The notes beneath the pieces are model-generated. The model had not been told where the DNA came from, ran no database searches, and was given only the letters and a program-made list of their open reading frames with translations. Source: Ferrovibrio sp. (GTDB taxonomy: Bacteria; Pseudomonadota; Alphaproteobacteria; Ferrovibrionales; Ferrovibrionaceae). From it: DNA of 64,000 bases. The translations under genes and the position numbers were made by a program. The first letter of the stretch is position 1. Each line of letters starts with the position of its first letter. The stretch is from NCBI RefSeq assembly GCF_025869515.1, contig NZ_JAOZVR010000016.1:1-64000 (forward strand), in the 5' to 3' direction. This document shows positions 58,604 through 64,000 of the stretch, piece after piece.

Positions 58604-58693
<90 letters not shown>

Positions 58694-58746
58694 AAAACTT
58701 CAATAACGTATTGAAATATATAGATTTTATATTAAAAGCCCTGCAA

Positions 58747-58877: not shown

Positions 58878-61800
58878 TCATTCCTCCGGGTTCCCAAACG
58901 GAATCAGGATCTGAGGCGCTTCAGTCAATGCGACTAACTTCACGCCATTCAATGGGCGGACGGTCGCGCGATTGGCCGGATCGAATATCAACCGCACCTC
59001 GTCCTGATAGCCATCCTCGAGACCGCTGACCAAAGCCAGGATGAAATCGTTGCCGCGTTCCTTAGCGCGCTCATATTCGGCGTTCGACATCTCGATCGAA
59101 CTCTGCGGCGCACGGCCAGTCGCTTTCATTTCGACGAAGGTCTTCCAGTCTATCGCGCCATCGGCGCCGACTCCATGCCGGTTGCGGAAGTCAATTAGTA
59201 GTTCCTCCGCCGAGGTTTCCAGCGCCTGCGTCAGCAGCTCCCAGCCACGTTGTTCTAGATCGCGATCAGTGTAGGTCGTTGGCGCCGTGCGCGATCCGGG
59301 ATGGGGTGGTTTTGGCGGAGGCGGCGTGTCGTGCAGCTTCGGCTTTGCTGGCGGTGGTGTCAGCTTCGGATCGCGCCCCGGCACCACCGTGGCGCCCAGA
59401 ATAGGGCCAACGCTATTCTTAAGGGTTCGGGGCTTCACGGTGGGGCCTTTCCCACCGGGGGTGCTCACTGAGATTTTCTTCTTCGGGGCGGCGTTGATCT
59501 TTGCAGCTCGGCCTTCCATTGCCTCCACGTGCTCCTCGTCCGATGCCAGACGAATGGCTGCGGCCGTGGTCTCGCGCGCTTCCTGCCAAGCCACCACCCA
59601 CTCGGCCTCAATGCCGCGGCGCAATGCATGCGGGAACAACGACGCGATCGCGTGACCGCCGTATTCACGCTTGGGCAGGGCCTCCTCCCAGACATGCAAT
59701 TCGAGTGGATCAGGCACGATCAATGCTTGAAGCTGGATTGGAATTTTCCCCGCTGACAATTCCTCGTCCATTGCCCGAATAGCAATCGGACCGGAGTATA
59801 CGAATAACGGAATCTCTCGCAGCGCATCCCAACTGATCGCCATGCGCTTGCGTACTTCTGGATTGTTGCGTGCTAGTTCATCGGAGAGATGATCGACCGC
59901 CTGCCGGAAATGCACTCGCATGCCGTCCCCACGATCCAAGGCTGTCTCGCGATCGTCCGCGACGACCAAGGTAGGCTCGCTGCGCGTCACCCCTGTGAAA
60001 ACCACCAACGACGTTAACTCACGAAGGTCACAAGGCGGCATCCAGAATTTCTTGGCGGGCAAAGCCTTCGCCAATTGCGATCTAAGTTCGGATTCTTCAA
60101 CCAGGAAAATGGGCCGCTCAGCCTCCCAACAATCGTCGCAGTACAGCGGCAGGACTTTCATCCGCTCACGGTGCCGCCGCTCCGCATTAGCCAGCAGGGG
60201 CTCCATATAGCGATATACGTCTATCAGGCGCGATGTGAGCCCAACATCATGCGCTTGCCCCGCGAGCGACTTTAGAAACATAAGGCAGTCATCAAGCGTA
60301 GGCTCACGCACATCCAAAGCAGACCAGAGGCTAGCCAAGGCTGGTCCGCCCGGCACAAAGCGCGAGCGGTTATGAAAGATATCCTTGCCGCGCATCAATT
60401 CATTTGGCCTGCGCCAAACATCGCCACCGATGTGAATAAGGCCCTGATTCTCCGTGAAAGCCTTGCGCAGATCCTGAATCATCATGTCGCCGATTCGCGT
60501 ATTCCACGCGACCGTGCTGGGCACGTATCTCGCGAGGTTGCGGTAGATCGCCATGACCTGCGCGTCGTCGACGACGTCATCCCCATCGCACATACCACGC
60601 AGCAGCCTTACTAGATCGCTGACGCGCACCGACGTTACCAACCCCAGTGTCGCCGCGAAGTCCGCGCTAAAATCCCTCACATCAATGCCAACCGCGAACG
60701 CAGTGCTAGCATATAGCGTTTGCGTCTCTTGTGTCTTCACCACGGCTTCGTTCGGCTTCACCAACTCACCCTTGCCGACCGCCACCCACGGCATTTCACG
60801 CAAGTGGATCAGCCATTGTGCGGTGACAGGCGCCCTCGGATAAACGTAGACGCGCGCCTCGTGCTGCGAGGCGACCATCTTGCGGTCAGCGTAAGACCGC
60901 TCCCAAGCGCGGGCCACGGCCTTAAATAAAGCGGGGCTTCTCTCGCGCAGGTCCTTCTTAGAGAGCTTTTGGAATGCGGTTAGAACGCGTTCGAGATCCG
61001 GACTAATCCAATCGGTCGGCACTTGCTCGGCCTGGGCCGCACGGAGTTCCTGGCTCCGCGTCCCGCCACCCCAACGGACTAAGCCGGTTTTCTTCAATCG
61101 CGGTGCATTTTCCACGCCGAGTAAAGCGAAAAACTTACGCGCGCCCCGCGAGATGGTTCCATCAGCGCGTTTACGCTGCGCGCGAGTTGCACCTGTCTTC
61201 AGTTTCTCATCGTATCCGGCAGCGATCCAATGAATGCCCGGTACGGTACCAGCCGCCGTGGGCCAGTTTGGGAAATCACTATCCAACGTCTTGCATAGAT
61301 AGGCTTCCGTCGGACACACCTTCTGCCTGTGCATCTTACCACGCCTATAAACGAAGCCATCCACCATCAGCGCCGCGCCTACGGCATGGCCGATCTCTTC
61401 CGCACGGCGATCGCTCAGCTCATCGAAGCGATTGCGAAGCTCGCGCAAGTCAGCATCCTCTATCTCTAGCGGCGTAGCCCCGAATCGCTCGGCAAAGGCC
61501 TCGAGTTCGGTCGATGCATCGACACTTGTTCGGAACGCTGCGTGCTTATTCAGCCAACGAATCGCAACATCACCATCCTTTTCGATACCGTATGCCGCAT
61601 GCAAGCGATCGAGCAGGTTCCACCGCAATGAAAACATTGAAAGCTCTTCGCATAGAACGAGCGGTTTGTCCGTAGTGCCTAGGCGCTTGCAGGCCACGGC
61701 ACTGCCTTTGTCCGTCAGCCAGAATGGAGTATCGAATAGCTCCTCATTGACGTGGGTCTCCACCAACACGCGCGCAGCCTTCACCCACCAACTTGGTCTC

Positions 61801-63299
61801 TTCGGTTGGAATACTGATTTCTTGAAGCCCTCAAGCAGTTCCGTCGTGCCAATAATAGTGCAGGCTCCGATTTGATCAAGCACGGCGCGCCACCTGCCAC
61901 CCGCATCGCGAATGTCGCGCGGCAGAGCCCGCGATCCTTCAGCTAATGCCTCGATATCGGCGTCCATCAGAAGATCGCTTAGACCGGCATGTTCATAGGC
62001 GATGTTCGACAGGGCAACGTGCGCGCCTCCAATAAGGACGTCCGCATGGCCGCCAAGCCAAGCGCGCGCCGTGTCGAACGATTTCGTGAAGCCATTGCGC
62101 AGCCAACGGTCACCTTCGTTTCCGATGTACTCAACAGCCAGCGGCACAAACCGCCAGGCCTCCTTGGGCGCCTCCAGCATCAGGCCATGCGCGATCTCGC
62201 CAAGCACATCGCCACATCGCTCGATTAGCCAATTGTTCCAAGTGCTTTCGATCAAGGCTTCGCGCGTGGTGCTGGGGTCGAATTGCGCGTCGAGCGAAAA
62301 TGACAGATCCACCGGAACACGCGTTTTAAAGCCGATATAAAGACTCCCCGCACCCGCCTCGCTTGGAACGGCGATGGAAATATTCGTCACCTCGGCGCGA
62401 GCCTTGTGAGCTGGATGCACATGACCCGGCACCGGCAAGGTCGCGCGCCACACGGTCCATGATGCCCCCCTTCTGCGTACCTCGCGTCTCGATAGCGCGG
62501 TGATGGAGGTGCGACCGCTAACTAGGGCAATGTTTTCCCACGCGCCGAAGCTCAGGATGCGGCCATCAAGGGTTGCGCCGGCGATATCACACCAGCGGAA
62601 ACTCGAGACCCAGCTCAGAAAGATTAGGCCGTCTTCCTTCCACTCCGCGAACCAGGCTTTCAGCCCCTCCTCGCTGAAGTCCGATCTCAGGCGAATTACG
62701 ATCATGGTATCGGTCGCGGGATCATAGAAGCCTGGCAGTGGCCCTTCCGCTGGCACAACTTGGATCGAAAGTTGATCCCCGGAAAAATGATACGGTGCCG
62801 AATGGACCGCGAGATCATCTGAGATTCGCCTGAGTGTCTTCAGGCCAATGCCAAACCGCCCGCGCTGATCGGTTCTGTTAGTCTTGGTCGTCACGAATGG
62901 TAGTGCCATGCCTAGCACGTGCTGGCAGGCTACCGGCTGACCATTATGCACGATCAATAGCTCGCGGCTGGCCTCCGTGTCACGCAAAGCGAAGCGCACT
63001 TCCGAGGCATGTAAATCATCCGCGTTTTGGATCACTTCCGTCAGCCCCTGAAATGGCTCAACGTTCAAATCCTCGGCGGCGGCAGCCGCGCCGCGCATCA
63101 TCTTCTTCAAGGCACCAGGCGAAGATGCCAAAGCATTCGCCAATCCCGCGATCACGGCATCCGCAAATTCGGGCGTGCGCGTATCGATCAGATCATCAAT
63201 ACCCGGCTGATCGTCCCAGATCATCCGCGCGGCGCGTGCACCCAAATCGGCGTCACTCTCTGCCGCAATTTCCGACGGAGGAACCGTTAGTTCGTTCAT
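58878..63299 (-). CDS. sacsin/Hsp90-like GHKL ATPase with NOV_C (DUF3883)-like C-terminal domain, 1473 aa
   Basis: N-terminal EVIQNADDLHASEVRFAL (Bergerat N-box) and RGRFGIGLKTLRRISDDLAVHS; C-terminal DWKTFVEMKATGRAPQSSIEMSNAEYERAKERGNDFILALVSG resembles a NOV_C/PD-(D/E)XK-like ExK core. Confidence 0.85.
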   Translation of the reverse strand: MNELTVPPSEIAAESDADLGARAARMIWDDQPGIDDLIDTRTPEFADAVIAGLANALASSPGALKKMMRGAAAAAEDLNVEPFQGLTEVIQNADDLHASEVRFALRDTEASRELLIVHNGQPVACQHVLGMALPFVTTKTNRTDQRGRFGIGLKTLRRISDDLAVHSAPYHFSGDQLSIQVVPAEGPLPGFYDPATDTMIVIRLRSDFSEEGLKAWFAEWKEDGLIFLSWVSSFRWCDIAGATLDGRILSFGAWENIALVSGRTSITALSRREVRRRGASWTVWRATLPVPGHVHPAHKARAEVTNISIAVPSEAGAGSLYIGFKTRVPVDLSFSLDAQFDPSTTREALIESTWNNWLIERCGDVLGEIAHGLMLEAPKEAWRFVPLAVEYIGNEGDRWLRNGFTKSFDTARAWLGGHADVLIGGAHVALSNIAYEHAGLSDLLMDADIEALAEGSRALPRDIRDAGGRWRAVLDQIGACTIIGTTELLEGFKKSVFQPKRPSWWVKAARVLVETHVNEELFDTPFWLTDKGSAVACKRLGTTDKPLVLCEELSMFSLRWNLLDRLHAAYGIEKDGDVAIRWLNKHAAFRTSVDASTELEAFAERFGATPLEIEDADLRELRNRFDELSDRRAEEIGHAVGAALMVDGFVYRRGKMHRQKVCPTEAYLCKTLDSDFPNWPTAAGTVPGIHWIAAGYDEKLKTGATRAQRKRADGTISRGARKFFALLGVENAPRLKKTGLVRWGGGTRSQELRAAQAEQVPTDWISPDLERVLTAFQKLSKKDLRERSPALFKAVARAWERSYADRKMVASQHEARVYVYPRAPVTAQWLIHLREMPWVAVGKGELVKPNEAVVKTQETQTLYASTAFAVGIDVRDFSADFAATLGLVTSVRVSDLVRLLRGMCDGDDVVDDAQVMAIYRNLARYVPSTVAWNTRIGDMMIQDLRKAFTENQGLIHIGGDVWRRPNELMRGKDIFHNRSRFVPGGPALASLWSALDVREPTLDDCLMFLKSLAGQAHDVGLTSRLIDVYRYMEPLLANAERRHRERMKVLPLYCDDCWEAERPIFLVEESELRSQLAKALPAKKFWMPPCDLRELTSLVVFTGVTRSEPTLVVADDRETALDRGDGMRVHFRQAVDHLSDELARNNPEVRKRMAISWDALREIPLFVYSGPIAIRAMDEELSAGKIPIQLQALIVPDPLELHVWEEALPKREYGGHAIASLFPHALRRGIEAEWVVAWQEARETTAAAIRLASDEEHVEAMEGRAAKINAAPKKKISVSTPGGKGPTVKPRTLKNSVGPILGATVVPGRDPKLTPPPAKPKLHDTPPPPKPPHPGSRTAPTTYTDRDLEQRGWELLTQALETSAEELLIDFRNRHGVGADGAIDWKTFVEMKATGRAPQSSIEMSNAEYERAKERGNDFILALVSGLEDGYQDEVRLIFDPANRATVRPLNGVKLVALTEAPQILIPFGNPEE

Positions 63300-63547
63300 A
63301 ATTTAAGGGGCCTCAGATAGTATCCTTGCTTAAGAACCGTGAGGATTCTGGCATCTTTTGGCGCACTGGTCGCGAACATCGGAAATCCCAGGGGCAAACA
63401 AGGCAATACCAGATCGGGACAACCCTGCGTTTCTGCCTTATGAAGCCGGAATCGAAATCCCAATCTATGAACAGCGCGTCTAACGGCAAATTCAGGAGGA
63501 GTAGCCCTGCTTGCATACTCGACAATGAACACTCTTCTCAGAAATCT
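63296..63547 (-). pseudogene. decayed very-short-patch-repair endonuclease (Vsr)-like ORF
   Basis: RATPPEFAVRRAVHRLGFRFRLHKAETQGCPDLVLP matches the Vsr N-terminal core (T.PE.AVR..LH.LGFR(Y/F)RLH...PG.PDLV.P), but the following HGCFWH catalytic block is missing; stop overlaps the ATPase start (TTATGA). Confidence 0.65.
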
Positions 63548-64000
63548 CATGAGCATCGACGGCACCCCTCCAACAGTGGAGAGCATCGCAAACTTGGGAC
63601 GACATTTAATTGAAAGGTATACGAAAGATGCGGGCGTTTCGGCATATAGACCGGTGATGGCAAGCGTGTTCGGGCATTGCACCAGAAGCCAAACGTATAA
63701 GATATTTCAACTTCTCCCTCACAAAACTGAAAATGGCTTTGAGCAGCAATGTCGTGAGATTGATATTGAGAATGGCGACTTCCTGTTGATGGGAGATGAC
63801 GCGGAAGCTTTGAGGCCCAGAATTATCGAACTCGCAGCGAAACAGAATCCTCGTTTTAGAGGTATAGAACCGAAGATCATTCTACAAAATCGCATCGTCG
63901 GCACTGAAGTGGGTACCGTGGGCGGCACTATTCAGGTTGGTATCGCAACTGCGAATTCCTTCAAAGTCTATGCAAGCGTATTTAATGGACAGCCGGGCGG
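63525..64000 (+). CDS. hypothetical protein, partial (runs off window end)
   Basis: ATG at 63525 with 158 open codons to the window edge: MNTLLRNLMSIDGTPPTVESIANLGRHLIERYTKDAGVSAYRP...; divergent from the ATPase. Confidence 0.6.
   Translation, partial: MNTLLRNLMSIDGTPPTVESIANLGRHLIERYTKDAGVSAYRPVMASVFGHCTRSQTYKIFQLLPHKTENGFEQQCREIDIENGDFLLMGDDAEALRPRIIELAAKQNPRFRGIEPKIILQNRIVGTEVGTVGGTIQVGIATANSFKVYASVFNGQPG

What the first reader, a model, noticed from the sequence alone, without database searches (positions are those of the whole stretch)
58878..63299. 1473-aa sacsin/Hsp90-like ATPase with NOV_C-like C-terminus as a candidate single-gene defence effector in a tRNA-linked island
Seen directly: a Bergerat-type ATPase N-terminus (EVIQNADD; GRFGIGLKTL) followed by about 1100 residues with no domain I recognise, then a C-terminal segment with an ExK core (FVEMKATG...SSIEMSNAEYERAKERG). 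Established: GHKL ATPases and DUF3883/NOV_C domains recur in prokaryotic defence islands, and large single-protein GHKL ATPase systems (e.g. Tiamat) exist. Inference: an ATP-gated nuclease or conformational sensor acting in phage or plasmid defence. The next gene upstream is a vsr remnant, which points to an R-M/DNA-modification neighbourhood.
Basis: partly seen in the sequence, partly recalled or inferred. Interest (0 to 1): 0.78.

Follow-up and report, generated by a model that had tools for sequence, protein, structure and literature searches.

The report
Tiamat anti-phage protein beside a tRNA
This 1473-residue protein is a full-length member of Tiamat, a known single-gene bacterial anti-virus system, sitting in a defence island inserted at a serine tRNA gene; its invariant ATPase and nuclease-like residues suggest a testable mechanism for a system whose mechanism the reviews we could read call unknown.

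Summary
The ORF is real, intact and on the minus strand (58878-63299, 1473 aa). It is not a new kind of system: PADLOC's Tiamat (TmtA) model PDLC03968 matches residues 13-1470 at 1688.8 bits. Thirty-one full-length relatives (25-87% identity) were recovered from Alphaproteobacteria, Gammaproteobacteria, Actinomycetota and Chloroflexota. All 32 share the GHKL catalytic motifs and a C-terminal D-x9-E-x-K in a NOV_C/DUF3883-like domain. Selection, measured against a relative 87% identical, is purifying (dN/dS 0.15; 0.036 in the C-terminal domain). The N-terminal half folds like Hsp90. The gene is accessory: absent from nine congeners, whose similarity to this contig ends at the tRNA-Ser(CGA) 3' end. 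Relatives lie beside BREX, MZA or a DSR2-like gene, and this contig carries a prokaryotic viperin 8.3 kb upstream of tmtA, beyond the window. Best mechanism: an Hsp90-like ATP-driven switch that licenses a C-terminal nuclease after sensing infection. The nuclease fold could not be confirmed by structure search, and activity is untested. The Vsr gene is a truncated remnant and says little. New member of a known kind; modest interest, because Tiamat's mechanism is reported as unknown and the invariant residues name the mutants to make.

The parts
58878..63299 (-). tmtA (Tiamat), 1473-aa ORF including stop codon
   Evidence: open frame; PADLOC TmtA PDLC03968 1688.8 bits over 13-1470; dN/dS 0.15 versus Mesorhizobium soli relative
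62700..63062 (-). sacsin/Hsp90-type GHKL ATPase domain, about residues 80-200
   Evidence: NCBIfam NF047352 59.2 bits at 85-165; sacsin structures 5v44-5v47 E 1e-9 to 3e-8 at 82-166; AlphaFold model pLDDT 87.5, top 50 PDB fold matches all Hsp90 family
63015..63038 (-). N-box EVIQNADD, residues 88-95; E88, Q91, N92, D95 conserved at 97% or more in 32 homologues
62832..62861 (-). G2 box GRFGIGLKTL, residues 147-156
   Evidence: G147-G152, T155, L156 at 97% or more in 32 homologues
59562..62219 (-). large middle region, residues 361-1246; conserved tryptophans, no recognised domain
   Evidence: no significant PDB fold match for residues 560-1473
59277..59561 (-). mostly low-confidence, partly proline-rich linker, about residues 1247-1341
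   Evidence: pLDDT below 50 at model 688-729 and 752-782
58881..59282 (-). C-terminal NOV_C/DUF3883-like domain, residues 1340-1473, putative nuclease
   Evidence: Pfam PF13020 25.3 bits, in 12 of 29 homologues at E<=0.01; dN/dS 0.036 for 1346-1473
59124..59162 (-). putative catalytic core D1380-x9-E1390-x-K1392
   Evidence: D1380, E1390 and K1392 invariant in all 32 sequences
58604..58693 (+). tRNA-Ser(CGA), left boundary of the island
   Evidence: congener similarity ends at 58693-58695
63296..63682 (-). truncated vsr remnant (pseudogene)
   Evidence: Pfam Vsr 32.5 bits, profile 9-54 of 74; NCBIfam vsr far below cut-off

Best explanation
The gene encodes a Tiamat (TmtA) anti-phage protein, horizontally acquired as a single-gene unit into a defence island at tRNA-Ser(CGA). 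Shown: homology, intact ATPase motifs, invariant D-x9-ExK, purifying selection, accessory distribution, defence neighbours. Inferred: ATP binding and hydrolysis drive an Hsp90-like dimer clamp whose middle region recognises an infection signal, and closing the clamp licenses the flexibly tethered C-terminal NOV_C domain to cut nucleic acid, phage DNA or the host's own. Membership in Tiamat about 0.95; this mechanism about 0.6.
For: Tiamat membership: PADLOC PDLC03968 1688.8 bits end to end; two shorter relatives, L005 and L006, each match all nine TmtA profiles, so the profiles form one homologous family. ATPase: E88 and N92 sit where Hsp90-type ATPases have the catalytic Glu and Mg-binding Asn (general knowledge), near-invariant; Hsp90-like fold; sacsin sequence match. 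Nuclease: NOV_C above Pfam's cut-off; DUF3883 was described as a restriction-endonuclease-type domain (PMC3710099); D1380, E1390, K1392 invariant in 32 of 32; strongest constraint in this domain. Defence: absent from nine congeners, horizontal spread, DNA similarity to the 87% relative limited to the gene, relatives next to BREX, MZA and DSR2-like, pVip on the same contig. A GHKL-plus-nuclease design is experimentally supported in VcSduA, where mutating either activity abolished defence (PMC12137116).
Against: No assay of defence, ATPase or nuclease activity exists for this protein. No significant structural match for the C-terminal domain, and the loop holding D1380 is low confidence in the model. 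The original Bacillus cereus Tiamat could not be retrieved for direct comparison. Fold matches to Hsp90 mostly have TM-scores below 0.3, so the clamp and dimer are inferred.
Confidence: 0.6

Rival explanations
1. Tiamat defence protein, but the NOV_C domain is a non-cutting nucleic-acid or protein-binding module and the effect comes from Hsp90/sacsin-like remodelling of a phage or host protein.
For: Nuclease fold not confirmed; the Hsp90-like architecture is the best-supported structural feature.
Against: Invariant D-x9-ExK in 32 of 32 and the lowest dN/dS in that domain fit catalysis better than simple binding.
Confidence: 0.25
2. A housekeeping or stress chaperone unrelated to defence that happens to lie in an island.
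For: Hsp90-like N-terminal fold.
Against: Absent from nine congeners, spread across phyla against taxonomy, relatives beside BREX, MZA and DSR2-like genes.
Confidence: 0.05
3. Part of a restriction-modification unit with the neighbouring Vsr.
For: A Vsr-like ORF lies immediately upstream.
Against: Vsr is truncated; no methyltransferase appeared among the ten island proteins scanned; DNA similarity to the 87% relative covers only tmtA.
Confidence: 0.03

Closest known systems
Tiamat (TmtA), PADLOC PDLC03968 group
   Same: Full-length profile match, single large protein, N-terminal GHKL ATPase, C-terminal NOV_C-like domain
   Different: No tested difference; relation to the B. cereus founder is indirect, through intermediates
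VcSduA, Shedu with N-terminal GHKL ATPase (PMC12137116)
   Same: GHKL ATPase at one end and a PD-(D/E)xK-type nuclease at the other in one polypeptide; likely a similar gating logic
   Different: C-terminal domain there is DUF4263; no DUF4263 match here; this protein is far longer
Sacsin
   Same: N-terminal Hsp90-like ATP-binding domain matches solved sacsin structures
   Different: No HEPN or DnaJ match, and only one stretch matched; C-terminus is NOV_C
Plant NO VEIN (source of the NOV_C family name)
   Same: Shares the NOV_C C-terminal domain; GHKL plus NOV_C architecture recalled from memory, not tested
   Different: Eukaryotic developmental protein; no alignment made here

Membership tests
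Tiamat (TmtA) | End-to-end match to a TmtA profile | tested here: met
   PDLC03968 1688.8 bits, protein 13-1470, profile 6-1482 of 1486
Tiamat (TmtA) | N-terminal GHKL ATPase with intact motifs | tested here: met
Tiamat (TmtA) | Single-gene system without a conserved partner | tested here: met
   No neighbour cluster shared by more than 6 loci, against 37 loci that hold the gene; DNA similarity to L038 confined to the gene
Tiamat (TmtA) | Direct homology to the experimentally tested Bacillus cereus protein | tested here: inconclusive
   Founder sequence not retrievable; L005 and L006 match all nine TmtA profiles
Tiamat (TmtA) | Protection against phage | not testable with these tools
   needs a plaque assay
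PD-(D/E)xK nuclease (NOV_C/DUF3883) | NOV_C profile match above curated cut-off | tested here: met
   25.3 bits against 22.1
PD-(D/E)xK nuclease (NOV_C/DUF3883) | Invariant acidic residue plus ExK | tested here: met
   D1380, E1390, K1392 in 32 of 32
PD-(D/E)xK nuclease (NOV_C/DUF3883) | Restriction-endonuclease-like fold | tested here: inconclusive
   no significant match; best hint is a SPARDA chain at E 1.9, prob 0.28
Shedu (VcSduA type) | DUF4263 nuclease domain | tested here: not met
   one search lists no DUF4263
Sacsin | Repeated sacsin modules with DnaJ and HEPN domains | tested here: not met
   only a weak SACS match at 86-109 and no HEPN or DnaJ
Restriction-modification with Vsr | Intact Vsr and partner methyltransferase | tested here: not met
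   truncated Vsr, no methyltransferase among the scanned neighbours

The most novel reading that the evidence does not exclude
Tiamat is an ATP-gated nuclease in which an Hsp90/sacsin-like clamp senses a phage-made protein or nucleic-acid structure and licenses a tethered NOV_C nuclease. That would give Tiamat its mechanism and make it a prokaryotic counterpart of the sacsin and NO VEIN protein families.
Probability: 0.45. Interest if true: 0.5.

Novelty: new member of a known kind. Interest (0 to 1): 0.33.

Why it matters
Papers held here list Tiamat's mechanism as unknown (PMC10482375, PMC12926258). The 32-member alignment names a small set of residues, E88, N92, D1380, E1390 and K1392, whose mutation would show directly whether Tiamat is an ATP-gated nuclease. 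The locus is also a clean example of a defence gene moving as a single-gene unit into a tRNA hotspot, on the same contig as a viperin.

Tried and rejected
Housekeeping chaperone: rejected on distribution and neighbourhood. R-M unit with Vsr: rejected, Vsr truncated and no methyltransferase among the scanned neighbours. A direct repeat of the tRNA 3' end marking the island's right end: none on the contig, so the right boundary is unknown. Low G+C of the gene as evidence of foreignness: tmtA is 0.584, within the 0.559-0.669 range of windows of equal length in the left part of the contig; only its flanks (0.397 and 0.488) stand out. Phage and viral-contig searches: no relatives. Promoter and terminator scans: fewer sites than chance. 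PDB matches by profile to residues 560-1473 or to the C-terminal domain alone: nothing significant. A literature search for a Tiamat mechanism found none in the held library; the original Tiamat paper is not held.

Full report
What is there. The interval 58878-63299 holds one intact ORF on the minus strand, 1473 codons from an ATG; read on the plus strand it is full of stops. Pfam NOV_C matches 1367-1429 above its cut-off, and NCBIfam's sacsin-type N-terminal ATP-binding model matches 85-165 above its cut-off.

What family it is. PADLOC's TmtA model PDLC03968, the protein of the Tiamat system, matches residues 13-1470 over profile positions 6-1482 of 1486 with 1688.8 bits; other TmtA models match the ATPase region or the C-terminus weakly. 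Two shorter class-level relatives, L005 and L006, each match all nine TmtA models, so the models describe one homologous family. The original Bacillus cereus protein was not available for a direct comparison, which is the one gap in the membership test.

Relatives. A scan of one genome per species returned 38 loci, and with three plasmid loci a set of 32 full-length sequences was aligned, including the window's. The closest is Mesorhizobium soli NHI-8 at 87%, then Bauldia 68%, Yoonia 63%, Stappia 52%, Pseudomonas sp. REP124 49% and Kluyvera ascorbata 47%; Chloroflexota and Actinomycetota members lie near 25-31%. In the tree gammaproteobacterial sequences nest among alphaproteobacterial ones, which indicates horizontal transfer. 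No relatives were found in the phage or viral collections.

Anatomy. E88, Q91, N92, D95, H118, G120, K139, G147-G152, T155 and T198 are conserved at 97% or more across the 32, as expected of a hydrolysing GHKL ATPase (general knowledge of Hsp90 and MutL). The AlphaFold model of residues 1-700 is confident (mean pLDDT 87.5); its 50 best PDB matches are all Hsp90, TRAP1, GRP94 or HtpG, E from 1e-9 to 4e-6 but with low TM-scores. A profile of this region finds sacsin structures 5v44-5v47 at E about 1e-9 to 3e-8. The middle region has no significant structural match. A mostly low-confidence, partly proline-rich linker (about 1247-1341) leads to the C-terminal domain, where D1380, E1390 and K1392 are invariant in all 32, the spacing expected of a PD-(D/E)xK nuclease. 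DUF3883 was earlier called a novel REase domain (PMC3710099). The fold itself is not confirmed: neither fold nor sequence searches of the PDB gave a significant match.

Selection. Against the Mesorhizobium relative, dN/dS is 0.15 overall and 0.036 for residues 1346-1473, the lowest of all segments. The gene is maintained and the C-terminal domain is the most constrained part.

Island. The gene is absent from the nine other genomes of the genus. DNA similarity to congeners runs up to the tRNA-Ser(CGA) and ends at its 3' end, 58693-58695; the four congeners examined carry different cargo behind that tRNA, so it is an insertion hotspot. Similarity between this contig and the Mesorhizobium locus covers only tmtA, from 13 bases upstream of the start to just past the stop, so the gene appears to have moved as a single unit. 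Beyond the window the contig carries a tyrosine recombinase at C16:64272-64847 and a prokaryotic viperin at C16:71601-72521 (PADLOC pVip 290 bits; NCBIfam 309.5 bits against a cut-off of 180). The right end of the island was not found. A segment C16:64164-68488 is 92% identical to a stretch elsewhere in one congener, so the island is a mosaic.

Neighbourhood. Among 116 proteins flanking twelve relatives, 117 PADLOC families were matched at E<=1e-15, against one family among 54 genes from the left part of this contig. The control comes from a different organism than the test set, and several families can match one protein, so this is an indication, not a rate. Specific cases: BrxA, PglZ, BrxHI and PglX beside the Mesorhizobium soli copy, MzaB, C, D and E beside another Mesorhizobium copy, and a DSR2-like gene beside the Pseudomonas reidholzensis copy.

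Vsr. The upstream ORF 63296-63682 matches only part of the Vsr profile and is truncated just before tmtA. It is a remnant and gives little support to an R-M setting.

Mechanism. The best-supported reading is an ATP-driven Hsp90-like switch that licenses a C-terminal nuclease after sensing infection. VcSduA, a Shedu variant with a GHKL ATPase and a nuclease, loses defence when either activity is mutated (PMC12137116), which makes the logic plausible, though it is not the same family: no DUF4263 was found here. The trigger and the target are unknown.

Verdict. The value lies in naming the residues that would settle how Tiamat works.

Noticed in passing
contig C16:71601-72521 (-), beyond the window; L002:15602-16522: A prokaryotic viperin (pVip) lies on the same contig, 8.3 kb upstream of tmtA; the gene beside it at C16:72457-73803 (+) matches PADLOC's 'Ankyrin' model at 243 bits.
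   Followed up: partly
contig C16:64164-68488; L002:8165-12489: A segment with a tyrosine recombinase, a DUF3768 protein and an XRE-type regulator is 92% identical to a stretch at a different place in one congener (G295), suggesting a separate mobile module.
   Followed up: partly
L040:9968-14404 (Bauldia MAG) and L039 (Yoonia): By eye, the Bauldia copy sits between phage-tail-like genes on the opposite strand and the Yoonia copy near phage-like genes, suggesting carriage by prophages or gene transfer agents; no family search was read gene by gene there.
   Followed up: no
L036:8001-8138 (Rhizobium rhododendri pTi6.2) and two further Rhizobium plasmids: A 46-residue remnant of the TmtA C-terminus, 72-74% identical, survives with no annotated gene on three Rhizobium plasmids, perhaps a relic of a lost copy.
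   Followed up: no
L034:3924-7295, L043:6124-9597, L047, L059:4450-7911: A TM0106-type RecB-like nuclease gene recurs beside four of the TmtA relatives; it may be a recurrent companion or a shared hotspot resident.
   Followed up: partly
L038:3849-5924: A 691-aa protein near the Mesorhizobium soli tmtA looks by eye like another GHKL ATPase; it has no PADLOC match.
   Followed up: no
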